DNA from: a virus
Direction: 5' to 3' (one strand)
IMG/VR virus record: IMGVR_UViG_3300028844_005938
Coordinates: 1-22,607 of that record
Length of the DNA stretch: 22,607 nucleotides
Position 1 is the stretch's first letter, and each line of letters starts with the position of its first letter. The position numbers and the translations under genes were made by a program. Below, piece by piece: positions 85 through 16,584 of the stretch. Under the pieces are notes generated by a model. The model was not told the origin of the DNA and ran no database searches. It saw only the letters and a list, made by a program, of their open reading frames with translations.

Positions 85-98
85 ATTATAAAAAATCC

Positions 99-127
99 AG
101 TATACACTATTTTCCTCAACTTGTCAA
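99..127 (-). promoter_or_regulatory. Sigma70-type early promoter for the left-edge gene
   Basis: On the minus strand there is a perfect -35 TTGACA (122-127), a 17-base spacer and a -10 TATACT (99-104). The sequence before the -35 (TTTTTAGC) and the end of the spacer (TAGTG) closely resemble those of the promoter at 21182-21209. This identifies a shared early-promoter class read by host RNA polymerase. Confidence 0.8.
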
Positions 128-139
128 GCTAAAAATATC

Positions 140-1819
140 ATGTCAGCACAGGCTATTGCTCTACAGAACTACAAACGAAACCCTCATCTGAAAAGAGTAG
201 GTCAGGAAATACCCTTCACCCGTGAGCAGGTTGAAGAATATATTCGCTGCCGTGATGATGTTGTTTACTTTCTGAACAACTATTTTTTCATCACCACAAT
301 TGATAGGGGTAAGCAAATCATTGAACTCTGGGACTATCAGGAAGACATCATCAATTTGATACATGCGAATCGTAAAACGATTGTTCTGTCAGCCCGTCAG
401 ATTTCAAAAACAACAACAGTCTGTGGCTACATTCTACATTACATTCTGTTCAACAGTTCAAAGAACGTTGCGATTCTTGCCAATCAAAAGAAGATTGCAG
501 TCAAGAGCCTTCGATTAATAAAACAAGCATATGAGCAAATACCTCTATGGATGCAACAAGGTGTGATGGCTTGGAATGTCAACTCAATTGAACTTGAAAA
601 TGGTTGTGTTGTCATGACATCAGCTTCAACAGGAGACAGTATTCGTGGTGAAACAATCAACTTTCTGTATGTGGATGAGTGTGCTTTCGTGGATAACTTT
701 GACACATTCTGGTCCGCAAACTATCCTACCATCTCATCTGGAACCACATCAAAGGTTGTGATGACATCCACACCAAAAGGATTGAATCATTTCTACAAGT
801 TCTGGACAGAAGCAGAAGCAGGTGTCAATGATTTTGTTCCCTACAAGGTGATGTGGGATCAAAGACCAGGACGAGATGAGGAATGGAAGAAAAAAACAAT
901 TCAAGAGTTTGGGGAAGAACAGTTTCTTGTGGAGCATTGCTGCCAGTTTCTCGGAAGTACTGACACATTGATTGATTCATCAAAACTGAAAGAGATGCCA
1001 ATCAGCAAGCCCATCAAGGTAGTCGACAACATTAAGATCTATCATGACGTCAAAGACGGTCATGATTACACTTTAGTCGCAGATGTCTCAAAGGGGCGTG
1101 GTCAAGATTATTCTGTCTTCTCAGTCATCGATGTCTCAATGAAACCTTTTCGTGTGGTAGCAGTTTACAGAGACAATAAAGTTCAACCAATCATCTATGC
1201 GAGAATCATACACAATGCAGCTTTATATTACAACAAGGCACAGGTCCTTGTGGAAGAGAACAACATCGGTTCTCAAGTCACGGATGTTCTTTATCAAGAC
1301 CTGGAGTATGAGAACATCTTCACCACGGTCAAGAAAGACCAGAAAACAATCCTCTCAAGCGGGTTTCACCGCACTGCAAAAATGGGCATCACCACAACGC
1401 CCAGAGTCAAAAGAATTGGTTGCTCCAATCTTAAGATGCTCGTTGAAAAAAACCAACTGCTGGTGACAGATTCCGAAACAATCAGCGAATTTCTGACCTT
1501 CTCTGTTGATGGAAGAGGCTCATATAGTGCTGAAAATGGTAAGCATGACGATTGTATCATGACTCTAGTTTTGTTTGCCTGGATGGTAGACGAAATGTAT
1601 TTCAAAGAATTATATGAAAACAATATTCGTGAAAATCTCATGAAATATATGGAAGAAAAAGAAAGTGAAGAAAATTATTTACCTTTTGGCTTCCTCAGTA
1701 ATGGTGTCGATGAATATGATTTTTCATTAGGAAATGACCAAGAAGATCCTCAGGAACATCTTGAAATGCTTAGAAAAAATATGTGGCTACTAGGTCTTGA
1801 GGAAAAAAGTGAAAATTGA
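140..1819 (+). CDS. 17: Terminase large subunit (gp17-like packaging ATPase/nuclease)
   Basis: This is the motor that cuts concatemeric DNA and pumps it through the portal into the prohead. It has 559 residues against 610 in T4 gp17. The N-terminal ATPase holds a Walker A segment SARQISKTT at 84-92, a Walker B FLYVDE at 175-180 with catalytic E180, and the coupling motif TSTP at 209-212. The C-terminal RNase H-like nuclease has D315 in VADVSKGRGQDY, E372 in LVEENNIG and the D470/D471 pair in KHDD, matching the acidic triad of T4 gp17. The P-loop is odd: the normal glycine before the lysine is serine (S89). The start codon has no clear ribosome binding site and lies just beside a divergent promoter, so the exact start is less certain than the identity. 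Genes 18 and 19 follow, as in T4. Confidence 0.97.
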   Translation: MSAQAIALQNYKRNPHLKRVGQEIPFTREQVEEYIRCRDDVVYFLNNYFFITTIDRGKQIIELWDYQEDIINLIHANRKTIVLSARQISKTTTVCGYILHYILFNSSKNVAILANQKKIAVKSLRLIKQAYEQIPLWMQQGVMAWNVNSIELENGCVVMTSASTGDSIRGETINFLYVDECAFVDNFDTFWSANYPTISSGTTSKVVMTSTPKGLNHFYKFWTEAEAGVNDFVPYKVMWDQRPGRDEEWKKKTIQEFGEEQFLVEHCCQFLGSTDTLIDSSKLKEMPISKPIKVVDNIKIYHDVKDGHDYTLVADVSKGRGQDYSVFSVIDVSMKPFRVVAVYRDNKVQPIIYARIIHNAALYYNKAQVLVEENNIGSQVTDVLYQDLEYENIFTTVKKDQKTILSSGFHRTAKMGITTTPRVKRIGCSNLKMLVEKNQLLVTDSETISEFLTFSVDGRGSYSAENGKHDDCIMTLVLFAWMVDEMYFKELYENNIRENLMKYMEEKESEENYLPFGFLSNGVDEYDFSLGNDQEDPQEHLEMLRKNMWLLGLEEKSEN

Positions 1820-1825
1820 TAAATA
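1818..1825 (+). promoter_or_regulatory. Late promoter GATAAATA upstream of the sheath gene
   Basis: The box overlaps the terminase stop codon and has the context TTGATAAATAT, repeated at 5199 and 16605. It would give the sheath mRNA an unusually long leader, with 100 nt between box and start codon. Confidence 0.5.
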
Positions 1826-1925
1826 TTTGAAATACGAATAATAATAAAGAAAATGATTCAATATAATTTATTTTTTGATGTGGAATTTAACCCTGAATAC
1901 GAAGCATCAATAAAAAGGATACAAT

Positions 1926-4418
1926 ATGTCAACTGTAAATGTAGATTTCCCACTTTCCCCGGGTGTAGTAACTTCAGAGATTGACAATTCAATTCGTCAA
2001 ACTGCAGTTCCTCTGGGAAGTGTTGGTTCCTTGATTGGTAAGTTTTCTTGGGGTCCTGCTATGGTACCAACAATGGTAGCGGATCATCAAGAATTTGAAA
2101 CTTTATTTGGAGGACCAACAAATAATAATTTTATTGAATGGTTTAACGGATATAACTTTTTAGAGTATGGTGAAAATTTAAATGTAGTGCGATTGGTTGA
2201 TTTTGATAATTCAAGAAATGCTTGTTTTTCAGGCATCGATACTGTTTTAGTTACAAATGATGAAGACTATACAAACAATTTGATCATTGAAGAGGGTGGT
2301 ATCAGTGATGGAACAGCCGCTCCTGGTAAAATTGTAATTGGTGTCAATTCAGCACCAGGACCTTGGATTGCTCGTTATCCAGGTGTCAAAGGTAATTCAC
2401 TACGTGTTGATACTTGTTTTGCTACTGATTATGGACGACAAATTGGAAGATATGACGAAGAAGGTATGGTTCTGGGAAGTATCGCTAATTCAAATCCAAC
2501 TTGGGTAATTAATCAAATTACATTTAATCTTATTGCCAGTTCAGCAAATGAGTATGAATGTCAACTTGCTTATCGTGACCTTGTATCAAATAATCATATT
2601 GATATTTGGGGAGGAGTGCGAGGTTGGTTTGAAGATTCAACAGATGTATTAGCAGATGGCGGTCTTCTAAATCAAGAAAAAGTTGTAACATTCTTTGATG
2701 GAACAGATTCATATAATATGTTGATTACTGGAATTAACTCAGCAGCAAAAACATTTAATGCTTATGTAAATCGAAATGATGTAGGTGCGCCTCCACGTGT
2801 TTTAGACTTGAGCGCAAATCCTTTACAATCATTACATATAAGAACTCGTTCAAAGTATCGTGAATTTTCTTACGGAGCTACACGAAATTCACCAAACAAT
2901 CTATTGGGTAAAGTTTATTTCTCAAACAATACCTATAAGATTCGTGGTGTAAAGACTGCATTTACAAAGCAAATTTCGAAAGGTGATACAATTAGTGTTG
3001 CCGGACAAGCAGTAAATGTTTTGAGTGTAGATAATGATAGAGAACTCACAGTCGGACGTGTTTTGATTGGTGAGTATACAGCAAACACCGCAACTAGCTG
3101 GTCAAGAGAATGGCAATATTCTCAGTTCTTTGCCAGTGAACCAGCTTCATCAAACTACAATCGTGGTGTAAATGGTGATTATACAGCACATTTCAATGAC
3201 CAAATGCATATTGTAGTGCTTGATGAGCTTGGTGATATTACAGGAAATAAAGGTGAAGTCCTTGAGACTTATTCACACCTTTCACTTGCTCGAGATGGTA
3301 AAGATGACTACGGTGTTCCAACTTATTATGTTGGACGAATCAATACAAATTCAGATTGGATTCGTTGGTCAAATCATGCTCTTGCAACACAGCCTCATAA
3401 CTGGGGTTCAAATGCTTTGGATACAACATTTATGACATATAATAAAGTTCTAAATGCTCTTGGTAACAATCTAAGTGCTGCTACCTTTGCTGGTGGTTCA
3501 AATGGAACTCAAGTCGATAATGCTGACGTCATTGAAGCAATTGATTTGTTCCGAGCAAAAGAAACTCATGAGACAGATTTTATGATGACTGGTTGGACTT
3601 ATGATGTTATGAATCCTTTAAATTATCATTTGCTCATTTCAAAAATGATTCAAGTAGCTGAAGAAAGAAAAGATTGTGTAGTATGTGTCTCTGGTGAATA
3701 TGGAGCAATTTGCCGAGGTAAATCAAATGCGGATGACATCACTGATAACTATATACAGTGGAGGTCTGCGATTGTACCTAGTTCATATGCGATTATGGAT
3801 GGAAACTTTAAGTATCAATATGATTCGTATAATGATACTTATCGTTGGTTGCCTCTATCTGGAGATATCGCAGGTTTGATGGCGAGAGTTGACATTGAAC
3901 AAGCACCTTGGTATTCTCCTGCTGGAATGAAACGAGGTCAAATTAAGAATGTAGTTAAACTTTCTTATAGCCCTTCTCGAGAAAATCGAGATAATTTGTA
4001 TCTCAATCAAATCAATCCAGTAGTAACATTCAAAGGTGAAGGAACTATTCTATACGGAGATAAAACACTTCAGGTAATTCCAAGTGCTTTTGACCGAATC
4101 AATGTTCGACGACTTTTCATTCGCTTGAAAGATTATATTGTTGTTGAAGCAAGAAAGAAATTGTTTGAATTTAACACTCCTTACACAAGGGCCGATTTTA
4201 GAAAATTGACCGAACGCTATCTCGATCAGGTTCGTGTTGATCAAGGTCTTTCTGAGTATCGTGTGATTTGTGATGAAACAAATAACACTAATAAACTTAT
4301 TGAAGAAAATAAATTTGTGGCTGATATCTACATCAAGCCGACATATGTAATTAACTTCATTAAATTAAACTTCACCGCAGTTGGTCAAACTGTAGAGTTT
4401 GATGACCTTGGTGTATAA
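1926..4418 (+). CDS. 18: Contractile tail sheath protein (gp18-like)
   Basis: This subunit polymerises around the tail tube and contracts to drive DNA injection. The N terminus has the family signature LSPGVVTSEID, then a segment SLIGKFSWGPAM and a phenylalanine/glycine-rich stretch ending FLEYGENLNVVRLVD. The conserved C-terminal core contains RRLFIRLKDYIVVEARK, a FNTPYTRADF segment and VADIYIKPTYVINFIKLNF, the strand that locks neighbouring subunits together. At 830 residues it is much larger than the 659-residue T4 protein. The extra length lies in the middle (about residues 90-480), where sheath proteins carry surface-exposed, variable domains. An AAGGAT ribosome binding site precedes the ATG. 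The tube gene follows after 11 bases, so the two are cotranscribed. Confidence 0.96.
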   Translation: MSTVNVDFPLSPGVVTSEIDNSIRQTAVPLGSVGSLIGKFSWGPAMVPTMVADHQEFETLFGGPTNNNFIEWFNGYNFLEYGENLNVVRLVDFDNSRNACFSGIDTVLVTNDEDYTNNLIIEEGGISDGTAAPGKIVIGVNSAPGPWIARYPGVKGNSLRVDTCFATDYGRQIGRYDEEGMVLGSIANSNPTWVINQITFNLIASSANEYECQLAYRDLVSNNHIDIWGGVRGWFEDSTDVLADGGLLNQEKVVTFFDGTDSYNMLITGINSAAKTFNAYVNRNDVGAPPRVLDLSANPLQSLHIRTRSKYREFSYGATRNSPNNLLGKVYFSNNTYKIRGVKTAFTKQISKGDTISVAGQAVNVLSVDNDRELTVGRVLIGEYTANTATSWSREWQYSQFFASEPASSNYNRGVNGDYTAHFNDQMHIVVLDELGDITGNKGEVLETYSHLSLARDGKDDYGVPTYYVGRINTNSDWIRWSNHALATQPHNWGSNALDTTFMTYNKVLNALGNNLSAATFAGGSNGTQVDNADVIEAIDLFRAKETHETDFMMTGWTYDVMNPLNYHLLISKMIQVAEERKDCVVCVSGEYGAICRGKSNADDITDNYIQWRSAIVPSSYAIMDGNFKYQYDSYNDTYRWLPLSGDIAGLMARVDIEQAPWYSPAGMKRGQIKNVVKLSYSPSRENRDNLYLNQINPVVTFKGEGTILYGDKTLQVIPSAFDRINVRRLFIRLKDYIVVEARKKLFEFNTPYTRADFRKLTERYLDQVRVDQGLSEYRVICDETNNTNKLIEENKFVADIYIKPTYVINFIKLNFTAVGQTVEFDDLGV

Positions 4419-4429
4419 AAGGAGATAAA

Positions 4430-5125
4430 ATGGCAATTAGTATTTCAACACTTAGAAATAAAATGACTGGTGGTGGAGCACGTCCATCACTCTTTTTTGC
4501 TCACGTTTCATTTTCAGACGAATTGAAAACTGCACTTGGTAGTGCTGTATCGGATGTTATTGATGGAGGTAATGGTGCGGATGTTTCGTTTTTTATGAAA
4601 GGTTCTCAAATACCTGAGAGTACATTAAATGCTGTTCCAATCAATTTTCTTGGTCGTGAATTTAAAGTTCCTTCTACAGACCGTGTATTTCAAGACTGGA
4701 CTGTTCAAGTAATTAACGATGAAGATTATCGTATTCGTCACATCTTTGAAGCATGGATTGAGCATGTCACACCAGGAGGAGCTATCTTTGCATCTCAAGC
4801 AGCATTTGGTGGTGATGGAAACCAAAGTGTGTTCTGCAATATGGAAGTTCATCAATTGACAAAAGCCGGAGATATTTCATCATATGGTGGTGGAACTGGA
4901 AACGCTACGAATGCGAAATATTACGGATCTTATTATTTTGTTGATGCTTTTCCAACCAGTGTTTCTCAAATGGATTTAAGCTGGGATACAAAGGATACAA
5001 TTGAAGAATTCACTGTGACCTTTGCTTATCAATATTGGAAGAAGACTCCGGATGTTGTACCAGGTACAGTGAGTCCATTTATTGATACGAAAGCTACTAG
5101 TTGGGTTGCGGCAGCGAAAGAATAA
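4430..5125 (+). CDS. 19: Tail tube protein (gp19-like)
   Basis: This protein stacks as hexameric rings to form the inner tail tube through which DNA passes. It has 231 residues against 163 in T4 gp19. Recognisable family features are the N terminus with RPSLFFAHVSF, the IPINFLGR-like segment (VPINFLGREFKVPSTDR), the block FQDWTVQVINDEDYRIRHIF and the closing strands DLSWDTKDTIEEFTVTFAYQYW. Extra residues sit in a glycine-rich loop near 145-165 and in the tail after residue 210. The AAAGGAG ribosome binding site is strong and lies 11 bases or less after the sheath stop codon. A terminator follows at 5150-5180, ending the 17-18-19 unit. Confidence 0.94.
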   Translation: MAISISTLRNKMTGGGARPSLFFAHVSFSDELKTALGSAVSDVIDGGNGADVSFFMKGSQIPESTLNAVPINFLGREFKVPSTDRVFQDWTVQVINDEDYRIRHIFEAWIEHVTPGGAIFASQAAFGGDGNQSVFCNMEVHQLTKAGDISSYGGGTGNATNAKYYGSYYFVDAFPTSVSQMDLSWDTKDTIEEFTVTFAYQYWKKTPDVVPGTVSPFIDTKATSWVAAAKE

Positions 5126-5149
5126 GATTATTATTTTATATGAATATTC

Positions 5150-5180
5150 AACCCACACCATAAGAGGTGTGGGTTTTTTT
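5150..5180 (+). terminator. Rho-independent terminator after the tube gene
   Basis: AACCCACACC (5150-5159) and GGTGTGGGTT (5166-5175) form a perfect 10-bp stem around a 6-base loop. The stem runs into a seven-T tract (5174-5180). It separates the tail unit from the portal/head unit. Confidence 0.93.
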
Positions 5181-5198
5181 AGGTCAAAAATTGTGAAT

Positions 5199-5206
5199 GA
5201 TAAATA
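5199..5206 (+). promoter_or_regulatory. Late promoter GATAAATA for the portal gene
   Basis: The box sits in the intergenic region just after the terminator, 40 nt before the portal start codon. It shares the ATGATAAATATT context with the box at 1818. Confidence 0.6.
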
Positions 5207-5246
5207 TTGATACCAATATTTCTAATTTATTCAGGAGTTTATATTC

Positions 5247-6980
5247 ATGGCTACATTATTTGGATGGAAGTTTGAAGAACAGAAAGACCGTGAAGAAACG
5301 AATCTTCAGGCGTTTAGCCCACCTGACTTTGATGATGGCTCTGCCGTTGTAGGCGCAGCCGGTGTATATGGTACCTATCTAAATTTAGACAATACCTTTA
5401 CAAACGAATTTGATCTGATGGCTCGTTATCGTGCGATGTCAATGCAACCTGAATGTGAGTTAGCAATTGATGAGATTGTTAACGAATCGATTACATCTGG
5501 AAGAAAATCATATCCCGTATCCATTGAACTTGACTATCTTGAAGACTATTCGGAGATGCTCAAGGAAAAGATTGGTGATGCTTTCTATGAACTAATGGAT
5601 AAACTGAATTTCAAATACATGGGTTATGAAATTTTTCGCAAGTGGTTTATTGATGGACGATTATTCTATCAAACATTGATTGATGTCAAGAATCCTCAAA
5701 AGGGTATTCTTGAATTGCGACCGATTGACCCATTCAAAATCAAGAAAATTCGAGAGAGAAAGAAGACAGAGGAAGAGTCTGCACGCATTGGAATGGATGA
5801 AATCAAAATCAATCAGCAATATAATGAATACTATCTATATTCTGAAACTGGTGTTTTTAATCTTGAAACAGAAGGAGATCGAAAGAATGTTCTGAAGATT
5901 TCACCCGATTCAATTGTCTATGTGAACAGTGGTCTGTTGGATGAAAGACGCAAGAATGTAGTTTCATATCTACACAAAGCGTTTCGTCCAATGAACCAAA
6001 TACGAATGCTGGAAGATGCGGCAATCATTTATCGATTAAGCCGTGCGCCATCACGAAGAGTGTTCTATGTGGATGTTGGTAACTTGCCAAAAGCAAAAGC
6101 CGAACAGTACATGCACTCACTGATGAGCCAGTATCGTAACAAGATGGTCTATGATAGCAAAACAGGTCAGTTAAGAGATGACCGTAAGTTTCAAGCAATG
6201 CTTGAAGACTATTGGATGCCCCGGAGAAATGGCTCGGCAACCACAGAGATTGACACAATTCAAGGAAGTGAGGCGAACTTCACTCAGCTGGATGAACTTG
6301 AATTCTTTCAGCGACAACTCTTTCGTTCACTGAATGTGCCCATCTCAAGAATGCAACCTGAAGCTGGTTTCTCATTAGGACGAGCAAGTGAAATCTCAAG
6401 AGAAGAATATAAGTTCATGAGATTCATTGAAAGATTAAGAACACGATTTTCAAATTTCTTTTTAGAGGTTTTAAAACGACAGCTAATTCTCAAGAACATT
6501 GTTTCAATGAAACAGTGGGAAGAAATAGCTGATTCAATTCATTTTACATTTGACCAAGACAGTAACTTCAATGCTCTGAAAAACCTTGAACTTCTCACTG
6601 AAAAGATGAATGTGTTGCGAGATGCGGAAGAGTATCGTGGAAGATACTTCTCTGCTAACTATATTCGTAAGAACATTCTATCTCTTAGTGATGAAGATAT
6701 CGATAGAATTGATGAAGAGATTGAAGAAGAAAAATATGATCCACGATTCGCACCTAAAGAAGGTGACGCTGGCTTCGGTATGGGCAGCATGGGCGGAATG
6801 GGAGGCGGTCTCGGTGGTGGCCTCAGAGGTGACCTCGGTGGTGGATTACCCACAAGTTTTGATGATGGCATCGGAGGAGAACCAAGTGAACCAAGTGGTT
6901 CAGGTATGGTAAATGACCTCGGTGGTGGAAGTGGTGGAGGTCTTGGCGGAACAACAACACCTGGCACAGGAGAATTATAA
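5247..6980 (+). CDS. 20: Portal vertex protein (gp20-like)
   Basis: A dodecamer of this protein forms the head vertex where scaffold assembly starts, terminase docks and the neck attaches. The long conserved block at about residues 249-310 includes IRMLEDAAIIYRLSRAPSRR and then VFYVDVGNLPKAKAEQYM, both typical of T4-like portals. A later segment (IQGSEANFTQLDELEFFQ, then NVPISRM) is also characteristic. It has 577 residues against 524 in T4. The surplus is a glycine-rich tail from about residue 506 made of short GG(G/M/L) runs mixed with D, S and P, unlike the rest of the protein. A CAGGAG ribosome binding site precedes the start. The stop codon overlaps the next ATG (TAATG), so gp67 is translationally coupled. 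Confidence 0.96.
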   Translation: MATLFGWKFEEQKDREETNLQAFSPPDFDDGSAVVGAAGVYGTYLNLDNTFTNEFDLMARYRAMSMQPECELAIDEIVNESITSGRKSYPVSIELDYLEDYSEMLKEKIGDAFYELMDKLNFKYMGYEIFRKWFIDGRLFYQTLIDVKNPQKGILELRPIDPFKIKKIRERKKTEEESARIGMDEIKINQQYNEYYLYSETGVFNLETEGDRKNVLKISPDSIVYVNSGLLDERRKNVVSYLHKAFRPMNQIRMLEDAAIIYRLSRAPSRRVFYVDVGNLPKAKAEQYMHSLMSQYRNKMVYDSKTGQLRDDRKFQAMLEDYWMPRRNGSATTEIDTIQGSEANFTQLDELEFFQRQLFRSLNVPISRMQPEAGFSLGRASEISREEYKFMRFIERLRTRFSNFFLEVLKRQLILKNIVSMKQWEEIADSIHFTFDQDSNFNALKNLELLTEKMNVLRDAEEYRGRYFSANYIRKNILSLSDEDIDRIDEEIEEEKYDPRFAPKEGDAGFGMGSMGGMGGGLGGGLRGDLGGGLPTSFDDGIGGEPSEPSGSGMVNDLGGGSGGGLGGTTTPGTGEL

Positions 6981-7243
6981 TGGACGCAGAAGAATTAACT
7001 AAAAATTTGATCAAGAATATTAACGATGAAGATTTGGCAGGTGCTAAATCAAACTTTGAAAGACTAATTGCAAATAAACTTTACGACAGACTTGAAGATA
7101 AGAAAGAAGGTCTAGGTAAAAAGATTTATTCAAAGGATTCAAATCCAGAATCAGATTCAGAACATGAAACTCAAACAACACAAGAGCCATCAGGACATGA
7201 GCAAGAAACTACAAGCGCCGAATACGCAACTGCGGAGCAGTGA
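6980..7243 (+). CDS. 67: Prohead core protein (gp67-like)
   Basis: This 87-residue acidic protein sits directly after the portal gene, as gp67 does in T4 (80 residues there). The N-terminal half is helical (ELTKNLIKNINDEDLAGAKS, then FERLIANKLYDRLEDKK), resembling the T4 gp67 pattern. The C-terminal half is a disordered E/S/T/Q-rich tail. In T4, gp67 is an internal scaffold component, essential for prohead shape and later digested by gp21. The start overlaps the portal stop by one base and the 3' end overlaps the next gene in a different frame. The assignment rests on position, size and composition more than on strong motifs. Confidence 0.78.
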   Translation: MDAEELTKNLIKNINDEDLAGAKSNFERLIANKLYDRLEDKKEGLGKKIYSKDSNPESDSEHETQTTQEPSGHEQETTSAEYATAEQ

Positions 7244-10200
7244 AATTGAACTAATCCTTGAACGTTCTTTTATTGATGATTGGATTGAAGGATCAAAAAA
7301 ATATGTTGCTGGTGAAAGAGATAAACTTCTCAAGAAAGCCTGGAATGGAAGTCGCAAGGCTGCCATCAACACGGGAGGAAAACTTTTTCTTCGTTCTCTC
7401 GAAAAGTTAGGTGTAAAGTCTGCTGGTGAAAAAGCAGATTTACTTGATCAGGCAAAGGAGTTAACTATTGCGTATCGTGAAAATCGACATAATGCCAATC
7501 AATCAAATGTACAGTTGATGAAAGCGATGAATAAACTTGGTATATTAGGCGATTATCTTGCAGAAATTACGACAAACAAAAATTTCTTAGAACGAATTGA
7601 TAATTTACTTCAAAGTCAATTTGATCCAGAAAGTCAAATTTTACTTAAGCAAGTAAAAAAATCATTTGAGGAACGACAGAAGCATATTACGACCGCTAAT
7701 AATGCACGTCTAAAATTAATGACTCCTTTATTCAAGCCACTTTTTGATGTAGATTTTTTGAATAATGATTTTAAAAGAGATATTCTACCATTAGAGTCCG
7801 CAGGTCTTATTCTTGTTGATACACCTCAAGAAGAAGAAAAAGCTAAAGATGAAATTCAGAAAAAGGGAAGACCAACTCAACTAAAACCAGAACTTGATTG
7901 GAAAAAAGATCCAACATCAAGTCATTTTCGAAGCATCACAGACCTCACTGTAATGAAAAATTGGCTTGAGCAGGACATCAATCAAAAGGATCCTCAAAAA
8001 GTTCAAAAGGCAAAAGAATTTACAACTGAGATTAACTCAAGAACTTCTGGTGCGACAAGAGAACAAGAATCAAATGAATCTTATCAACCAGAATTGTTTG
8101 AAGAATTGTTTGAGAATTTTGTAACTAAAAAAAAAATTAAAATTCTAGAGGCAGAAGATCGATCTGAATATGAAGAAGATGAAGATGGAAACGTAAGCTC
8201 AGACGAAGAAGTAGATCAAAATATTGTTTCTGAACTCAAACAAGAGTATCAAGAATTCTCAAAAAACATAACAGAAGTTCAAGAAGGATTTGAAAATTTC
8301 TTAACAAAAGATTTTCCAAAACATGTTGAAGAGATTGTAAAAAATTGGCGAAAACAAATTTCTAATAACTCAAAAGAAAAAGAAGAGGATAGAGTAGATG
8401 ATTTATTAACAGTAGCTATTGGTAATTCAAAACGTGTTGTAAAATTAGCAGATGAAATAGCAAATGAATATCGTATTATTCACGGAAACTTAACTACAAA
8501 AAGTTCTGTTCAAAAACTACTTCCAGGAATTTCCTCACTTCTTTCCAAAGTAACTGCTCAAGTCAAAAATTTAAAATCAGGCAACAATCTGAATAACAGA
8601 ATAAGTGCGAACAGTGTTAGGCCTGATGATAAAAATCTCTCTCCCTATGTTCAGTCAATACTTCATGAAATTTTTATAATGCATGGAGTAAGCTTGCTTT
8701 TATTTGATTCATATGTTCGTGATTCTCTGAGTGACCTTGATGATTTTTTTACTTCAAACAATACTCCTATTTTAAAGCCAAGCCAAAAAGTAGAAAAAAC
8801 ACCCTTTCGTAAATTATTATCCACTTTAGAAAAATATAATAAGTTTGTTTCGGAATTTTCTCAGCATACGCAAAATCTTGGCAGTAATAAAGAAGTTCAT
8901 AAATTGTATAACTTTTTGTATGACCATTTGTATTTGACAAAAGCAGGAGAAAATCCAGATGATAAAGATGAAGGATTATTTCATGCTGCTGTTTCTCATG
9001 CGGCAAATAAAAATAAAAAAGAATCTTATGACCATATAAAAGGATTTGCTGATTATCTTGGAAATTTGCTTAAAAGAAATTACCAAGAATTTGATGATTT
9101 GTCAAAACAAAAATTAGATAGTCTTGAAGGTAGAACAGCCTTTGATATAAGAAAGATTGACCGTGATCGAAAAGCGGCGATTTTATCTTGGGGACCTCAT
9201 CCTGAATTACAGGATAAAAAAGATACTGACTTGAATGAGTACGATAGTAAAGATTTTTCTTGGCAAAAATTTATTGAAGATAAACATTTATATTTCAAAA
9301 ATCCTGAATTATATGGTAAGCAAACACCAGCCCATGTGATTCGATATATTCAAAGTTTATCTTTAGAACAAAAGCAAAATAAATGGGAGGAATATCTCGC
9401 ATCAAAAAATAAGGTAAGTACAGAAGAAGGTGAAAAATCAGTTCCAGTGATTGAACACTTAAAGAATGATAAAATAATTGAATATATTAATGAAAATAAA
9501 GTAATTCTCTATACAACTCGAACAACTTGGGCCAAATTAAGAAATAAATGGAAACAAAAACGTAAAGAAGTTTATAATCATATTGAACGAACAAAATATT
9601 ATAAATTTGAGGATCTCTTAGGAAAATTGAATAAAGACATTGCTCCTGTTTCAATAAATCGAAACATCGTTGCTTTTCAAATACCTACTATAAACATATA
9701 TCATATTGACACTTTATTAAAAAATGAAGAATCTTCATCAGAAGACCTCAATCTAACAATTGATTTAGATAAACTTGCTTTTATTGCTGATAATTATAGT
9801 TTATTCGAAAAGATAGTTAAAGGAAATAAAAAAAGTATATTCATTTATGAACAAAATGAAGATTTTCAAAATAAAAATTTGCTAAAAGTGTTGACACAGA
9901 TTGCGACTATACTTGACGCTTTTCAACGAAGTTATGAACCCGCAAAAAAAATAAGTAAAGTTGAATTGATACAAGACTTAACCAATCGTGAATCAGAGTT
10001 TTTTAAAAAATTAGAATCAGATATAAATGAAAATAAAGTTAAAAAAGAGGTTATAATCCTTACAGCGGATTTTAATAAAATAATAAAGGGTCTTGAAAAA
10101 CAACAAACATCATCAATGATTAAGCTTAATATTTTAGCCACTCTTTTCTATAATCAAGATAACAGAGGAGGAAACACTTTAGTTCAAAATTATGCTAAGG

Positions 10201-12185
10201 ATATTGTATCAGAATCTAGTATTGAATCTTCTGATTCTCAAATTCGAATGCTAAAAAGTTCTTCACGGTCAATGAAGAGTAAAGTTGAAGGACGAGATCG
10301 GTTCTTAAGTGCTGAACAAAAATGGAGACATCGTAAAGAAACAATCGATAAAATTTTGACTGATAAAGATCAAATTAAGGCGATGGCTAAAGAAAGAGAA
10401 GAGAGGAATAAAAATAATGCGTTTTCTTATGAGGCACCGAGTTTAGATGAATATAAGTATAAACCTTTGGTTGATTTACTCAAAGATTTCTATACTCATC
10501 TTGGTAGAACAACAGCAAGAGGTATCAAAAGCTTAAGTTCTTATAATAAAGCCTTGTCACGATTTAAAAGATTTCATGATATTCCACAAACCTTCAGTCT
10601 TACAAGTTTTCAAAAGGTTATTACTGATGGTGAATACCCAGACAAATCTAATGATATTCAAGATTACGCTCCAAGAAAAGAATACGATCAAAAACAAAAA
10701 GAACTTATTCATAAAAAAGAAGATTTAGAAAAAATAACCAATTCAGAAACAAATCTCTTGCATAGTTGGGAAGACCTTGATGGTGAATTTAAATCTCTGT
10801 ATGACCTTGATAAGGGAGAGAAGGAAGCGAATCAAAGAATTTGGGATACTATTCTAAAACTTCAAAGACAGAATGAGGATTTTAAACAATTGAATCCAAT
10901 CAATCGTAAATCTTTTATTTCAATTTTGATTCCTTTATTGAAAGCCCTGTTAGAATATTCAAGGCAATCAACTACTTTATTATCTTTTGCTGACAAATTT
11001 ATGACTCTTCATTCAAAAGATATAATGCCTTTGCTAAGATATCGACAAAGTGATCCGAATCATGAGCAAAGTCCATTGAAAAGTAGGTCAGCGATTTCAA
11101 CTGAAAAATGGGACAATTATAATAGTATAATGAGAACATTGATAGGTGGAAGTGATTCGAATGGAATCAAAAGTAAGAATAGTATAGTTGAAAAATTAGG
11201 AAAAGAACCAAACGATAATACAGGTTCTTTTCATCCAGATGAATACCTAGAATACTTAAACTCGGATGAAGTTAATTTAGGGTTCTTTAAAGATATTGAC
11301 GTTGATTTATCAAGTGGCAATTATAAACAACTTGACTTAGAAAAACTGAACAAAAACATTGACGACATTGAATTTTTCTTTGACAAAATGGATCCGGATG
11401 CTGAACTTTCAATAAAGGAAAAAGAAAATGAAAGCGAGGATGAATATGAGGAAAGAAAAGAAAAGATCATAAAGCTGATCAAAACTTATCACAACAAATA
11501 TGAAGATGAAATTCTTCTCGTAAAGAATTTTATTTCAAAAATAAAAGGTAAAGATATTGAAATGCCTTTAGAAAAATTTTATCAAAGTGATCCATATTAT
11601 AAAAAGGTAGGAACTTATATAAGAGATGAAATAAAAGGACTGAGTAATCATCAAAAAGATTCTTTAATTATTATTTGCTGTTCGGTTGCGGAAATATTAT
11701 CAATAAAAAATCATGACCAAAGAGATGACAACCAAAAAACTGTAAAATTAAGTGAAGAAAAAATAAAAAGTATTCTTCAAGATTTTGTTCATCGACTAGT
11801 GGGCAAAGATAAAGGAGATACTGTAAATGATGCGAAACATATTCTCAAAGAATATTTTCGAAAATATAAAGCTCAAGTTTCTGTCAATGAATCATTTGCT
11901 TCAATTCGTTGGCGTAAGAATCCAAGGACGCATTTGAACAAAGTTACAATGGTTTGTAAAAATAATGAATACAAAAAAAGTCTAAATAGAGAAATAAACA
12001 TAGCCGGACAAAAGGTCAAAGAAACCATGTGTTTACCAAAAAGCGCAAAGCCTGCGGTTGATAAAGCAAAAGATAGAAAGTCTTCTCTTAAAAGATGGAA
12101 GACGGTTCGTTCAAATCCAGGCAAAATGAAAATTGCTAAAATGAAAAGAAATTTGACACGCAAATATTCAAAAACTTTAAGGTAG
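7197..12185 (+). CDS. Giant uncharacterised protein in the gp68 position, probable internal head protein
   Basis: I do not recognise this protein. The reading frame is open from an ATG at 7164 (1,673 residues). I prefer the ATG at 7197 (1,662 residues) because it overlaps gp67 less and has a weak AAGAG about ten bases upstream, but neither start has a good ribosome binding site. The sequence is almost entirely hydrophilic and helix-rich in K, E, D, N and S, with no membrane segment or signal peptide. A strongly acidic stretch lies near 8137-8220. The last ~100 residues are very basic and include RWRKNPRTHL, two cysteines (VCKNN, MCLPKS) and a K/R-rich end, suggesting nucleic-acid binding. It occupies the place of the small core protein gp68 between genes 67 and 21, so I infer a scaffold-core or DNA-packed internal protein. 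Codon use is more A-rich than in genes 21-23. Confidence 0.8.
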   Translation: MSKKLQAPNTQLRSSEIELILERSFIDDWIEGSKKYVAGERDKLLKKAWNGSRKAAINTGGKLFLRSLEKLGVKSAGEKADLLDQAKELTIAYRENRHNANQSNVQLMKAMNKLGILGDYLAEITTNKNFLERIDNLLQSQFDPESQILLKQVKKSFEERQKHITTANNARLKLMTPLFKPLFDVDFLNNDFKRDILPLESAGLILVDTPQEEEKAKDEIQKKGRPTQLKPELDWKKDPTSSHFRSITDLTVMKNWLEQDINQKDPQKVQKAKEFTTEINSRTSGATREQESNESYQPELFEELFENFVTKKKIKILEAEDRSEYEEDEDGNVSSDEEVDQNIVSELKQEYQEFSKNITEVQEGFENFLTKDFPKHVEEIVKNWRKQISNNSKEKEEDRVDDLLTVAIGNSKRVVKLADEIANEYRIIHGNLTTKSSVQKLLPGISSLLSKVTAQVKNLKSGNNLNNRISANSVRPDDKNLSPYVQSILHEIFIMHGVSLLLFDSYVRDSLSDLDDFFTSNNTPILKPSQKVEKTPFRKLLSTLEKYNKFVSEFSQHTQNLGSNKEVHKLYNFLYDHLYLTKAGENPDDKDEGLFHAAVSHAANKNKKESYDHIKGFADYLGNLLKRNYQEFDDLSKQKLDSLEGRTAFDIRKIDRDRKAAILSWGPHPELQDKKDTDLNEYDSKDFSWQKFIEDKHLYFKNPELYGKQTPAHVIRYIQSLSLEQKQNKWEEYLASKNKVSTEEGEKSVPVIEHLKNDKIIEYINENKVILYTTRTTWAKLRNKWKQKRKEVYNHIERTKYYKFEDLLGKLNKDIAPVSINRNIVAFQIPTINIYHIDTLLKNEESSSEDLNLTIDLDKLAFIADNYSLFEKIVKGNKKSIFIYEQNEDFQNKNLLKVLTQIATILDAFQRSYEPAKKISKVELIQDLTNRESEFFKKLESDINENKVKKEVIILTADFNKIIKGLEKQQTSSMIKLNILATLFYNQDNRGGNTLVQNYAKDIVSESSIESSDSQIRMLKSSSRSMKSKVEGRDRFLSAEQKWRHRKETIDKILTDKDQIKAMAKEREERNKNNAFSYEAPSLDEYKYKPLVDLLKDFYTHLGRTTARGIKSLSSYNKALSRFKRFHDIPQTFSLTSFQKVITDGEYPDKSNDIQDYAPRKEYDQKQKELIHKKEDLEKITNSETNLLHSWEDLDGEFKSLYDLDKGEKEANQRIWDTILKLQRQNEDFKQLNPINRKSFISILIPLLKALLEYSRQSTTLLSFADKFMTLHSKDIMPLLRYRQSDPNHEQSPLKSRSAISTEKWDNYNSIMRTLIGGSDSNGIKSKNSIVEKLGKEPNDNTGSFHPDEYLEYLNSDEVNLGFFKDIDVDLSSGNYKQLDLEKLNKNIDDIEFFFDKMDPDAELSIKEKENESEDEYEERKEKIIKLIKTYHNKYEDEILLVKNFISKIKGKDIEMPLEKFYQSDPYYKKVGTYIRDEIKGLSNHQKDSLIIICCSVAEILSIKNHDQRDDNQKTVKLSEEKIKSILQDFVHRLVGKDKGDTVNDAKHILKEYFRKYKAQVSVNESFASIRWRKNPRTHLNKVTMVCKNNEYKKSLNREINIAGQKVKETMCLPKSAKPAVDKAKDRKSSLKRWKTVRSNPGKMKIAKMKRNLTRKYSKTLR

Positions 12186-12192
12186 AGGACAA

Positions 12193-13062
12193 ATGAAATT
12201 ACTTGTTGAAAGCTCAGAAGATATCAAGAGTGTGATTGAAGAAAATGCCGATGGTGAAAAATCACATTTCCTTTCTGGCATCTTCATGCAAGCAGAACAA
12301 ACCAACAAGAATGGTAGAATCTATACTTTACCGATTCTTGAAAAAGAAACAAATCGTTACATTGACGAAAAAGTCAAAACGCAACGAGCATTGGGTGAGT
12401 TGAATCACCCTGCAGATCCTACTGTAAATCTTGAGCGAGTTTCACACATGGTGACGGAACTTGCAGTGGATGGAAATAATATTATGGGAAAAGCAAAAGT
12501 GCTTAACACTCCATGTGGGAATATAGTCCGTGGTCTTGTAGACGGTGGCGTTAAGCTTGGAGTATCTTCAAGAGGTGTTGGTTCTCTTCATCAAAGAGAT
12601 GGTGTTTCACTGGTCGGGGAAGACTTTCAATTGTCCGCAATTGATGTTGTCTATGACCCTTCAGCACCAAAAGCTTTTGTTGAAATGGTAATGGAATCTG
12701 TTGATTGGTTATGGAACGATGAAACAAAATCTTATGTAAAGCAGCAAGCTTCAATTCAAGAAGAAAAGTCCTTCACAAACAATCCAATGCCTTTCCTCGA
12801 TACCTTAGTTGAACTGAAAAGTGAAATCAAAGGTATGCAAGATAAGGTAATGATGGTGATGAACGAGAATCGAGAGATTCGCAAACTTGTTGAGAATCAA
12901 GCTTCTGTGCGTGTGAAGAAGAAAGAACAAGAACTAGACCGTTTGATTGAAGATACAAAAGACACTATCGAATTGAGTGTCAAGGAAAAGTTACGAGAGA
13001 AGCGTGAAGCAGAAACTCTTAAAATCTTTGACCATTTTTTGAAAGAAGTATCAAAAAAATAA
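12193..13062 (+). CDS. 21: Prohead core protease (gp21-like)
   Basis: This serine protease is built into the prohead core, where it digests scaffold and trims capsid proteins before DNA entry. The protease domain covers about residues 1-170. Family hallmarks are FLSGIFMQAEQTNKNGRIY at the N terminus, the histidine in ALGELNHP (H72), the serine in LGVSSRGVGS (S125/S126) and LSAIDVVYDPSAP after it. It has 289 residues against 212 in T4. The extra 120 are a charged, probably coiled-coil C-terminal extension that may anchor it in the core. SIQE at 187-190 fits the (L/I)-x-E cleavage rule and could be a self-processing site. An AGAGGA ribosome binding site lies in the 7-base gap after the giant gene. 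Confidence 0.95.
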   Translation: MKLLVESSEDIKSVIEENADGEKSHFLSGIFMQAEQTNKNGRIYTLPILEKETNRYIDEKVKTQRALGELNHPADPTVNLERVSHMVTELAVDGNNIMGKAKVLNTPCGNIVRGLVDGGVKLGVSSRGVGSLHQRDGVSLVGEDFQLSAIDVVYDPSAPKAFVEMVMESVDWLWNDETKSYVKQQASIQEEKSFTNNPMPFLDTLVELKSEIKGMQDKVMMVMNENREIRKLVENQASVRVKKKEQELDRLIEDTKDTIELSVKEKLREKREAETLKIFDHFLKEVSKK

Positions 13063-13067
13063 ATTTT

Positions 13068-13075
13068 TATAAATA
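13068..13075 (+). promoter_or_regulatory. Late promoter TATAAATA for the scaffold gene
   Basis: This is an exact T4 late consensus in the 60-base gap after gene 21, 47 nt before the scaffold start codon. Confidence 0.7.
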
Positions 13076-13122: not shown

Positions 13123-14436
13123 ATGGCCTCTAACACAGAACTTAAGAGTCAGATTTCCGATTTCATGAAAGATAAATTCGGAGATGAAATCAAAGACTCA
13201 ACTGACTTAAGTACTGTTGTTGATGAAGATAAAGTCGATTCAACAGTCAGTGCTTTGATGAAAAAATTGAAGATTACTCCTTCTGCGACCGAAGTTACAA
13301 TCAAAAAAGGAACCACAATCAGCACTCTTGCTACTCAACTTGCAGATGAGCAAGACAAGGATGATGATAGTGATGAGGATACTGTAACTGAAGCACGTCG
13401 ACGGAGAATGAAGAAGAAAGAAGAAGAACTCGAAGAAGCTCGTCGAAAGAAGAAGAAAGAAGAAGACGAGGATCTGAAAAAGAAACTTGATGAAGCTTCA
13501 AAGAAAAAGGATGATGACGATGATGACGAAGACGAAGATGATGAAAAGGAAATGGACTTTGAAGACATTGAAGACAAGGATAATGACGATGATGAAAAAG
13601 ACGAAGATGATGACAAGAAAGAAGCCAAGAAGAAAGCTGATAAAAAGAAGGACGTTAAGGAACAGATTGAATCTCTGTTCGCACAAGACGAAACTCTTAC
13701 AGAGGCTTTCAAAGAAAAAGCAGCAATTCTATTCGAAACCGTCTTGAATAAAAGAATTGACGAAGAAGTGGACGAGATTCGAGAATCTCTCGAAGAGCAA
13801 TACAATGAAAATCTCAAGGAAGCGGTAGAGGCTCATGCTGAACAACTCCATGAAGAATTGGATAACTTGACCACTAAGATTGATGAATACTTGACCTATG
13901 TAGCCGAAGAGTGGATGAAAGAGAACGAATTGGCAATTGAAAAAGGTGTTCGTGCAGAAATCACTGAAAACTTCATTTATGGATTGAGAAATCTCTTTGC
14001 TGAAAACTACATTGACGTTCCAGAAGGCAAGGAAAATCTTGTAGAATCTCTTGAAGAGCAGACCGAAGAACTTCAAGAACAAGTGAATTCTCACCTCAAG
14101 CGCAATATGAGGTTGAAGAAACAACTGCAGAATGAGCGAAGGAAGAACATCTTGTTTGAAAATTCCTCTGACCTGACAATGGCAGAAAGAGATCAACTCG
14201 AGCAGTTGACTGAATCTGTTGACTTTGAAAGCGAAGATGAATTCGAAAAGAAGATTCAGATCATTAAAGAACATTATTTTTCAAATGACTCTGAAACAAC
14301 CGTATCAAAGAAAAAAGATATGACTGAGGAAGAACAGTTTGGTTCTCAAACATTGCTTGAGGATTATCATGCTGAACCTGCCTCGATAACGGCGATTGAC
14401 GTATATAAAAACGCAATTTCAAAATTTGTTCGCTAA
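13123..14436 (+). CDS. 22: Prohead scaffold (core) protein (gp22-like)
   Basis: This is the main assembly core, around which the capsid protein polymerises and which gp21 then destroys. It has 437 residues against 269 in T4. Residues 1-85 look like a small folded domain. Residues ~90-185 are an extreme charged tract of alternating K/R and D/E blocks (for example DDDDDDEDEDDEKE). The rest is long coiled coil (LFETVLNKRIDEEVDEIRES and beyond), the part most like T4 gp22. Several LxE sites followed by alanine (LEE-A, LDE-A, LTE-A, LKE-A) fit gp21 cleavage. The C terminus ends VYKNAISKFVR, a plausible capsid-binding helix. Position between 21 and 23, the AAAGGA ribosome binding site and the dedicated late promoter support the call. 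The charged tract is the main enlargement relative to T4. Confidence 0.93.
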   Translation: MASNTELKSQISDFMKDKFGDEIKDSTDLSTVVDEDKVDSTVSALMKKLKITPSATEVTIKKGTTISTLATQLADEQDKDDDSDEDTVTEARRRRMKKKEEELEEARRKKKKEEDEDLKKKLDEASKKKDDDDDDEDEDDEKEMDFEDIEDKDNDDDEKDEDDDKKEAKKKADKKKDVKEQIESLFAQDETLTEAFKEKAAILFETVLNKRIDEEVDEIRESLEEQYNENLKEAVEAHAEQLHEELDNLTTKIDEYLTYVAEEWMKENELAIEKGVRAEITENFIYGLRNLFAENYIDVPEGKENLVESLEEQTEELQEQVNSHLKRNMRLKKQLQNERRKNILFENSSDLTMAERDQLEQLTESVDFESEDEFEKKIQIIKEHYFSNDSETTVSKKKDMTEEEQFGSQTLLEDYHAEPASITAIDVYKNAISKFVR

Positions 14437-14506: not shown

Positions 14507-16009
14507 ATGATTCTTAACGAGCAAGTTCAAGCAAAGTGGAAACCGATTCTTGAACATGAAGAATTACCTCAAATCGACGACAACTATAAGAAAAGCGTAA
14601 CCGCTATTCTCTTGGAGAACCAAGAAAAAATGATGCGAGAGCAAGCAATTCAGCAACAAGGTTCTGGATTGTTCTTGAGCGAGAATCCAAATGGTGGACC
14701 GATGGGTTCTAGTATGGATACATCCAACTTTGCTTCAGGAGTTGGAGATGGTTTACAGGCTACAGTGCCTTACAACGGACACACCTTTGGTGCTGCACCT
14801 GATGCTTCCGGTGCTGTTCAGTGGGTTGACCCTGTATTGATTTCTCTTGTAAGACGAACCATGCCTAAATTGTTGGCATATGATGTTTGTGGTGTTCAGC
14901 CAATGACATCTCCTGTTGGTTTGATCTTTGCAATGCGTTCACAATACGGATCACCTGGTGTTGTTCCTGGTACAGGAATGGATGGATTTGATGATACACT
15001 ATTGGGAACAAACGAAGCCTTCTTCGGTGAAGCAAACACTGCTTACACAGGAACAGGAACTCATGCTGACCTGAAAAATCCTACACAAGTCAATGCGCTT
15101 ACAGGAACAGATGATCCAGTAGAAGTATTTTTTAATGGGAATATGAATCATGGTAAAGGAATGCCAACCAGCTGGGGTGAGAACATGGGACGACCTAACG
15201 GACCAGAATTCCCAGAAATGTCATTCAGTATTGAGAAGATGTCTGTATCAGCCGTAACACGTAAGTTGCGTGGTCAGTATACTCTTGAGATGGCTCAAGA
15301 CCTGAAAGCAACTCACGGATTGAATGCTGAAAGCGAACTCGCAAACATTCTCTCAAATGAGATTCTTGCTGAAGTAAACCGCCAAGTAATTCGCACCATC
15401 TACACTGTAGCAAAGCCTGGTGCCCAGAACACAACTACCGCTCATGAATTTGACCTTTTGGTTGATTCAAACGGACGATGGTCAGTTGAGAAGTTCAAAG
15501 GTTTGATGTTCCAATTGGAAGTAGAAGCAAACCAAATTGCACGACAAACACGACGTGGAAAAGGAAATGTCATTCTTTGTTCCGCTGATGTTGCTTCCGC
15601 ACTTCAGATGGCAGGAATGCTTGACTACTCCTCAAACATGAGAGTGTCTTTGAAGACTGACGAAACTGACAACTTGTTTGCCGGTATTCTGAATGGTCAA
15701 TTCAAAGTATACATCGATCCTTATCTGCCTGTCAATGCTAAGAAAGCTATGGTATGTGTTGGATACAAAGGAACATCTCCTTATGATGCCGGTGTATTCT
15801 ACTGCCCATATCAGCCGCTACAAATGCTGAAGGCACAAGATCCACGAACCTTCACTCCAATCATTGGATTCATGAGCCGAGATGCAATGGTAGCTAATCC
15901 ATTCTCTCAAGTGGATCGAAATGGTTATCCAGTGCGTATCCCAGATGACGGAATTACTCCTAATCTGAACGTATACTATCGCAAGATGAAGGTTGTTAAC
16001 TTGACCTGA
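14507..16009 (+). CDS. 23: Major capsid protein (gp23-like)
   Basis: This protein builds the head shell. It has 500 residues against 521 in T4 gp23. Recognisable blocks include VDPVLISLVRRTMPKLLAYD, MSFSIEKMSVSAVTRKLRGQ, YTLEMAQDLKATHGLNAESE and ELANILSNEILAEVNRQVIR. The N-terminal ~59 residues are a charged helical propeptide matching the T4 delta domain. The sequence FLSE-N at 56-60 gives an (L/I)-x-E site, so gp21 is predicted to cut after E59 and leave a mature N terminus NPNGGPMGSSMD. The start has a strong AAAGGAG ribosome binding site and a dedicated late promoter, and a terminator follows. No gp24-like vertex paralogue follows it in the window. Confidence 0.97.
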   Translation: MILNEQVQAKWKPILEHEELPQIDDNYKKSVTAILLENQEKMMREQAIQQQGSGLFLSENPNGGPMGSSMDTSNFASGVGDGLQATVPYNGHTFGAAPDASGAVQWVDPVLISLVRRTMPKLLAYDVCGVQPMTSPVGLIFAMRSQYGSPGVVPGTGMDGFDDTLLGTNEAFFGEANTAYTGTGTHADLKNPTQVNALTGTDDPVEVFFNGNMNHGKGMPTSWGENMGRPNGPEFPEMSFSIEKMSVSAVTRKLRGQYTLEMAQDLKATHGLNAESELANILSNEILAEVNRQVIRTIYTVAKPGAQNTTTAHEFDLLVDSNGRWSVEKFKGLMFQLEVEANQIARQTRRGKGNVILCSADVASALQMAGMLDYSSNMRVSLKTDETDNLFAGILNGQFKVYIDPYLPVNAKKAMVCVGYKGTSPYDAGVFYCPYQPLQMLKAQDPRTFTPIIGFMSRDAMVANPFSQVDRNGYPVRIPDDGITPNLNVYYRKMKVVNLT

Positions 16010-16083: not shown

Positions 16084-16584
16084 TTAATCTTCAATGAAAA
16101 AAAACTCACCTGTCCATTCTTCATCAATTATACGAGGAGCAGTTTTTGATTGACGTGCTTGTAGAATCAAATCATTTGATTCTTTTGCGAAGTGACCATC
16201 CGCCCATGAAATTGTAACATGAGCAGGTCCTGGTTTTTGATTGGGTCCTGAATCTCTCTTTTGTAATATCTCACCATTTTCAAAGACCATTTCTGAAACT
16301 AAAAATGCTTGAATAAAATAATTCTGATAAAGTTTATTCATTTTCACTTTAACTTTTTGCCCTATATATCTTTTATATGATTCAGCAACTTTCATTTCAG
16401 GCTTGTAAGTGATTGTGATATGATAGAGAGGTTTGCCTTTTTCGTTTGTTGGATATTTTTTGAAATGAGCATATCTTTCAAAAAGTCTTTTGGATATTTG
16501 TGTTGAAGCAACAACAGCAAAATACCCATTCACTCTCTGTTCTTCATTAAGTAAAGTATTGATATCTGAGATTAGCTTATACAT
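16084..16584 (-). CDS. 2H phosphoesterase-family protein (two HxT motifs)
   Basis: This 166-residue protein has the two catalytic signatures of the 2H phosphoesterase superfamily: H55-I-T57 in LYHITITYKP and H122-V-T124 in PAHVTISWADG, 67 residues apart. The superfamily includes LigT-like RNA 2',3'-cyclic phosphodiesterases and 2'-5' ligases, viral 2'-5' oligoadenylate hydrolases, and the phage anti-CBASS nuclease Acb1 (T4 57B, about 152 residues). Length, motif spacing and the N-terminal NGYFAVVA strand are compatible with Acb1, but I cannot separate it from an RNA-processing role by eye. It lies on the opposite strand to the flanking virion genes, with its own leader and a possible late box 47 nt upstream. 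The ribosome binding site is weak (AGAG). An RNA ligase gene lies 3.5 kb away. Confidence 0.82.
   Translation of the reverse strand: MYKLISDINTLLNEEQRVNGYFAVVASTQISKRLFERYAHFKKYPTNEKGKPLYHITITYKPEMKVAESYKRYIGQKVKVKMNKLYQNYFIQAFLVSEMVFENGEILQKRDSGPNQKPGPAHVTISWADGHFAKESNDLILQARQSKTAPRIIDEEWTGEFFFIED

What the first reader, a model, noticed from the sequence alone, without database searches (positions are those of the whole stretch)
7164..12185. Giant protein replaces the small core protein gp68 inside the prohead operon
Between genes 67 and 21, where T4 has the 141-residue gp68, there is a single open frame of about 1,670 residues taking up over a fifth of the window. It is hydrophilic, helical and A-rich in codon use, with no enzymatic motif I can see. 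Its position predicts co-assembly with the scaffold core. It could be a giant core/length-control protein, or an internal protein ejected with the DNA.
Basis: partly seen in the sequence, partly recalled or inferred. Interest (0 to 1): 0.75.

Follow-up and report, generated by a model that had tools for sequence, protein, structure and literature searches.

The report
Giant swappable phage head-core protein
An uncultured T4-like virus carries, in the head-building gene block where T4 has the small protein gp68, an intact gene for a protein about twelve times larger; its two ends are conserved among relatives but its body is replaced wholesale between otherwise nearly identical viruses, which suggests a variable protein loaded into the virus head and perhaps injected into the host.

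Summary
One intact frame (7164-12185; likely start Met12 at 7197, 1,662 aa, 194 kDa) fills the gene-68 slot between 67 and 21. It is real coding sequence: an independent contig keeps the frame at 90% protein identity, with dN/dS about 0.5 against 0.05-0.10 in genes 18, 20 and 21. No cultured phage or profile library matches it.

Metagenomic relatives carry slot proteins of 623-1,737 aa, or two genes. All share a basic 98-aa C-terminal domain; most share an N-terminal (L/I)xE|RS[FL]ID motif. The body is lineage-specific. Between window and L011, whose genes 20 and 21 are 95% identical in DNA, the giants are unrelated over most of their length and differ even in the tail (71% DNA). An xxE motif close to the gp21 cleavage motif precedes the tail in every relative. 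In the window giant (L/I)xE sites are not enriched, as in T4's retained internal proteins and unlike degraded core proteins.

Best reading: a prohead-core protein trimmed by gp21 at both ends, with a fast-evolving body kept in the head and probably ejected. Membership in the gp68 family is suggestive, not shown. The body's structure model failed (pLDDT 33), so its activity is unknown.

The parts
5247..6980 (+). gene 20, portal protein (neighbour; 93-97% identical in the closest contigs)
   Evidence: Portal_T4 E=4e-154
6980..7243 (+). gene 67, prohead core protein; overlaps the start of the giant; its C-terminal half changes with the giant allele
   Evidence: phrog_1064 E=3e-5; DNA similarity to L011 ends near 7121
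7197..12185 (+). giant slot-68 protein, 1,662 aa from Met12 (ORF opens at 7164)
   Evidence: intact in L002
7197..7262 (+). putative 22-aa N-terminal propeptide / capsid-targeting peptide ending ...LILE|RSFIDD
   Evidence: conserved (L/I)xE|RS[FL]ID in L011, L015, L018 and, as LEE|RSFID, L022
7263..8150 (+). module A (residues 23-318), ends at KIKILE|AED, about where L022/L023/L026 have a gene boundary
   Evidence: boundary chosen by eye, inferred
8151..11888 (+). variable body (residues 319-1564), lineage-specific; no detectable relative outside its own allele over most of its length
11889..12182 (+). conserved basic C-terminal domain, 98 aa (net +24, pI 11.0), preceded by VNE|; predicted four strands then two helices broken at SNPG
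12193..13062 (+). gene 21, prohead protease
   Evidence: Peptidase_S77 E=1e-40
13068..13075 (+). TATAAATA, T4-type late-promoter match upstream of gene 22; none upstream of the giant within 85-13067 on this strand
13123..14436 (+). gene 22, major scaffold (enriched in (L/I)xE sites)
   Evidence: T4_CASP E=2e-52
14507..16009 (+). gene 23, major capsid protein
   Evidence: Gp23 E=8e-127

Best explanation
The gene encodes a late prohead-core protein of the gene-68 slot that has grown into a giant. During head assembly it would join the core through its N-terminal peptide and/or its basic, conserved C-terminal domain. The gp21 protease would then cut after ILE22 and after VNE1564 (and perhaps at ILE318), releasing a roughly 180-kDa body free of its targeting parts. 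The body would stay in the head with the DNA and be ejected into the host, where, like T4 internal proteins, it meets host-specific targets; this would explain why it evolves fast and is exchanged as a whole allele. Shown by sequence: intact gene, slot, conserved ends, allele exchange, weak purifying selection. Inferred: head location (about 0.8), gp21 processing at the two end sites (about 0.65), retention and ejection of the body (about 0.5), counter-defence or takeover role (about 0.35).
For: Slot between 67 and 21 in a T4-type operon. In all ten aligned relatives a Glu directly precedes the conserved tail, mostly as (L/I)xE (LTE, IVE, ITE, LNE; VNE in the window type, TTE in L022); N-terminal (L/I)xE|RS[FL]ID in L011, L015, L018. 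Where the slot holds two genes, the second opens with a short peptide ending LIE or VLE (MSQLNDLLIE|, MKFLTLKDVLE|), like the T4 targeting peptide MKTYQEFIAE|. (L/I)xE counts: T4 gp22 16 vs 5.9 expected, T4 gp68 5 vs 2.0; T4 ipII 1/1.0, ipIII 1/1.1, Alt (first 501 aa) 6/6.0; window gp22 18/10.0, giant 19/24.6. Giant alleles unrelated over most of their length in backbones 95% identical at DNA level; dN/dS 0.50 overall, 0.95 at residues 1250-1420, vs 0.05-0.10 for genes 18, 20, 21. Precedents read here: T4 Alt is cut at ITE-6 and LTE-619 (PMC5694885); Ip1-3 share only the leader, are injected and block restriction enzymes (PMC12373910).
Against: No proteomics. The window-type C-terminal site is VNE, not (L/I)xE, and L022 has TTE. 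(L/I)xE motifs are common by chance, so single sites prove little; the shorter relatives L015 and L018 and the L011 giant are mildly enriched (z 1.6-2.0), compatible with some degradation. gp19 shows a similar dN/dS (0.49), so fast evolution is not unique to the giant. No enzymatic or counter-defence domain found and the body model is unusable (pLDDT 33).
Confidence: 0.5

Rival explanations
1. Enlarged gp68: a structural core or head-size protein that is chopped up by gp21 and expelled before DNA packaging, its bulk filling the core and its variability reflecting weak sequence constraint on a spacer.
For: Same slot and same plan as T4 gp68, (L/I)xE followed by a basic helix-NP-helix tail; weak profile similarity of the tails; gp67, gp68 and gp22 of T4 are degraded (PMC9958956); mild (L/I)xE enrichment in L011, L015 and L018; a body under relaxed constraint would also give dN/dS near 0.5.
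Against: Window giant has fewer (L/I)xE than expected (19 vs 24.6) while gp22 of the same phage is enriched; length varies 623-1,737 aa among related phages; expelling 180 kDa per copy needs many cuts.
Confidence: 0.27
2. Polyprotein: gp21 cuts the giant at the tail, near residue 318 and elsewhere into several separately acting internal proteins.
For: Relatives L022, L023, L024 and L026 encode the two halves as separate genes, and L018 and L015 have ILE| or LLE| near the corresponding junction.
Against: The site at 318 was picked by eye among 19 candidates; body homology across lineages is too weak to place the junction firmly.
Confidence: 0.15
3. Non-structural or host-takeover protein that merely sits in the operon (not packaged).
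For: No direct evidence of packaging; lineage-specific sequence without family match.
Against: Tail and its preceding motif are conserved with the slot across the lineage; such conservation of ends with a free body is typical of targeting signals.
Confidence: 0.06
4. Assembly artefact or spurious ORF.
For: None.
Against: Same frame and flanks in contigs from independent metagenomes, with synonymous-biased divergence.
Confidence: 0.02

Closest known systems
T4 gp68 (prohead core protein; phrog_1049, PHROGs 'head scaffolding protein')
   Same: Gene slot 67-[68]-21-22-23, overlap with gene 67, (L/I)xE directly before a basic C-terminal tail with a helix-NP-helix pattern.
   Different: 1,662 vs 141 aa; no hit to phrog_1049; tail similarity only suggestive; (L/I)xE density 1.1 vs 3.5 per 100 aa.
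T4 internal proteins IPI-IPIII
   Same: N-terminal targeting-peptide-like segment ending (L/I)xE, body unrelated between alleles, no (L/I)xE enrichment (PMC12373910).
   Different: 100-193 aa for ipII and ipIII, encoded elsewhere in T4; no conserved C-terminal domain is described for them; the giant sits inside the prohead operon.
T4 Alt (packaged, ejected ADP-ribosyltransferase)
   Same: Large packaged protein reported to be cut at both ends, ITE-6 and LTE-619 (PMC5694885).
   Different: No sequence relation seen by eye; the Alt C-terminal propeptide is not basic; no ADP-ribosyltransferase match for the giant.
Ejection ('E') proteins of SPN3US-type giant phages
   Same: Large internal proteins with long propeptides processed by the prohead protease and ejected (PMC5694885).
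   Different: Different phage group; no sequence match found with any family.
Polyvalent proteins (Pfam LPD domains)
   Same: Very large phage protein; a sub-threshold LPD29 hit (E 0.056).
   Different: Hit 14.6 bits, below the 27-bit cut-off; no catalytic domains.

Membership tests
T4 gp68 family | Gene position between 67 and 21 | tested here: met
T4 gp68 family | Profile match to phrog_1049 or related gp68 families | tested here: not met
   No hit for the giant, its relatives or tails; T4 gp68 itself scores 1.7e-71
T4 gp68 family | Homologous basic C-terminal tail after a gp21 site | tested here: inconclusive
   Same architecture; hhalign probability 2-5%, 2/200 shuffles reach the score
T4 gp68 family | Degraded by gp21 (many (L/I)xE sites) | tested here: not met
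   As a proxy, 19 sites vs 24.6 expected; T4 gp68 5 vs 2.0
T4-type internal (injected) proteins | N-terminal targeting peptide ending (L/I)xE | tested here: inconclusive
   Motif present and conserved in several lineages but 22 aa long and not similar to MKTYQEFIAE
T4-type internal (injected) proteins | Present in virion and ejected | not testable with these tools
   Needs virion and infected-cell proteomics
T4-type internal (injected) proteins | Body unrelated between alleles of related phages | tested here: met
   for the N-terminal half weak similarity remains (z 4.7)
Polyvalent proteins | LPD or catalytic domain above cut-off | tested here: not met
   LPD29 14.6 bits vs cut-off 27

The most novel reading that the evidence does not exclude
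T4-like phages of this uncultured lineage use the gene-68 slot as a hypervariable delivery cassette: a conserved targeting head and tail carry a giant exchangeable body into the prohead, gp21 trims it free, and it is injected as an allele-specific effector against host defences.
Probability: 0.33. Interest if true: 0.82.

Novelty: new variant of a known kind. Interest (0 to 1): 0.6.

Why it matters
T4's internal head proteins are small and encoded outside the prohead operon, and the role of gp68 is poorly understood. A series of relatives in which the same slot holds two genes, one 620-680-aa protein, or a 1,660-1,740-aa giant with conserved ends would make it testable which part of a gp68-type protein targets it to the core, and whether the slot can serve as a delivery cassette. 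Two giant alleles in nearly identical backbones are a natural swap experiment. If the body is ejected, it would be far larger than the known injected proteins of T4 and a candidate source of counter-defence activities.

Tried and rejected
AlphaFold2 of residues 613-1572 with two sequences: mean pLDDT 33, not used for fold search. Fold search of the well-modelled tail (pLDDT 82): no match with E below 0.4 in PDB or BFVD; top PDB hits are mostly ribosomal proteins with E above 1. Weak profile hits (LPD29, Arc1p_N_like, NDK for L011, mad4 for L011, HAD for P0001) are below cut-offs or isolated and were rejected. Internal repeats: a blastp self-comparison printed none. A first reading that the swapped segment ends at 11904, before the tail, was corrected: blastn runs through the tail, but the tail itself is only 71% identical at DNA level while gene 21 next to it is 95%, so the whole gene changes. 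A full-family alignment of bodies is unreliable, and profile comparison beyond the ends is no better than reversed controls, except weak signals between the two giants near residues 13-182 and 291-358. Genus-style relatives of the record are not available. No tail relative in GTDB genomes or cultured phages. Length-control ruler considered and downgraded.

Full report
Observation. The window is a 22.6-kb linear virus record with the T4 late order 17-18-19-20-67-[giant]-21-22-23. The frame at 7164-12185 is open for 1,673 codons. Start: gene 67 ends at 7243; most relatives begin the slot gene with an overlap of roughly 20-65 nt, so Met12 at 7197 (47 nt overlap) is more likely, giving 1,662 aa and 194 kDa. 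The frame is genuine: L002, from another metagenome, keeps it at 90% protein identity and L003 keeps its start, with dN/dS 0.505 for the giant, 0.123 for its last 98 residues, 0.086 for gene 20 and 0.053 for gene 21.

No known family. The giant has no accepted hit in PHROGs, Pfam, NCBIfam, PADLOC or PDB sequences and no tblastn hit in 50,697 phage records. Of 2,550 phage records with a portal/gp21 match, 2,358 have both in one joined place; by the tool's joining rule, and from the joined spans listed, that implies a gap of at most about 1.5 kb, so there is no room for such a gene there. The lineage is uncultured: its capsid protein is at most about 50% identical to cultured phages, best to Methylophilales phage Melnitz. 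No psbA was found in five relatives, all of them partial, so the host is unknown.

The slot in relatives. gp20/gp21-anchored IMG/VR contigs give a series: window type 1,673/1,668 aa; L011/L012 type 1,722/1,737 aa; L015 type 677 aa; L018 type 623 aa; and two-gene types L022 (223+471), L023 (238+475), L024/L026 (261+495/496). All slot proteins, or the second of the pair, end in a 98-101-residue basic domain 57-67% identical to the window's (99% in L002) with invariant RWRxN, EYKK, CLPK and KRW positions. The N-terminal motif ILE|RSFID (window) recurs as LLE|RSFID (L015, L018), LNE|RSLID (L011) and LEE|RSFID (L022). Between these ends, different types are barely or not alignable: window and L011 show weak similarity over the N-terminal half (score z 4.7) and none in the last three of six slices; profile comparison with the short types finds only the N-terminal motif.

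Allele exchange. Window against L011: gene 20 part 95.1%, first 141 nt of gene 67 90.8%, then similarity collapses from about 7121; the tail is 71.4% and gene 21, eight bases further on, 94.9%. Each allele is seen in three independent metagenomes (window, L002, L003; L011, L012/L051, L052). The whole gene is therefore exchanged or has diverged far faster than its neighbours. Genes 18-19 form a second, milder block of divergence in some contigs.

Processing motifs. T4 gp21 cuts after (L/I)xE (PMC9026906). In all ten aligned relatives a Glu lies directly before the conserved tail: VNE, LTE, IVE, ITE, TTE, LNE. As a calibration, T4 proteins that gp21 degrades are rich in (L/I)xE (gp22 16 vs 5.9 expected, gp68 5 vs 2.0), while retained ones are not (ipII, ipIII, Alt part). 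In the window gp22 is enriched (18 vs 10.0) and the giant is not (19 vs 24.6); L011, L015 and L018 lie between (z 1.6-2.0). In two-gene relatives the second protein starts with a 10-14-residue peptide ending in LIE, VLE or INE, which looks like a T4 targeting peptide (MKTYQEFIAE in ipII and ipIII). These are motif arguments; no cleavage was observed.

Tail. AlphaFold2 on ten tails gives pLDDT 82: four strands and two helices broken at SNPG, with no fold match. T4 gp68 has after LNE67 a basic tail that also contains an NP break. Profile comparison places the two helical segments against each other near the C-terminus but weakly (E 0.0077 and 0.023; 2 of 200 column shuffles score as high). Homology to gp68 is thus plausible, not established.

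Mechanism. The most economical reading is a core protein with a conserved N-terminal peptide and a conserved basic C-terminal domain that secure packaging, both removed by gp21, leaving a large variable body in the head. T4 Alt is processed at both ends in this way (PMC5694885), and T4 Ip1-3 combine a shared leader with unrelated, injected bodies that block different restriction enzymes (PMC12373910). The main rival is an enlarged gp68 that is degraded and expelled. What would decide is the presence or absence of the intact body in virions.

Noticed in passing
window 16084-16584 (-): 166-aa protein with HITITY and HVTISW motifs and a sub-threshold 2H-phosphoesterase (2H-SAK) hit, E 0.0093.
   Followed up: partly
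window 20133-21161 (-): 342-aa protein with an EKVDGSL motif that looks like an RNA ligase by eye; no Pfam hit at E 0.01.
   Followed up: partly
window 879-5049 (end of 17, genes 18 and 19): Only 74-80% DNA identity to L003, L051, L052, L053 and L057 although gene 20 next to it is 92-95% identical: a second block of divergence or exchange.
   Followed up: no
window 4430-5125 (gene 19): Tail-tube gene has dN/dS 0.49 against L002, unusually high for a structural gene.
   Followed up: no
window 13123-14436 (gene 22): Scaffold protein of 437 aa with a long Asp/Lys/Glu-rich stretch near residues 85-170, larger than T4 gp22 (269 aa).
   Followed up: no
window 21409-21813 (-): 134-aa protein starting MSSNGGPMGSGMDVSDYEG, resembling the gp23 segment NPNGGPMGSSMDTSNFASG that follows its possible LSE cleavage site.
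   Followed up: no
L022, L023, L024, L026 (slot between 67 and 21): The slot is filled by two genes rather than one, with gene fusion or fission apparently near a gp21-type motif.
   Followed up: partly
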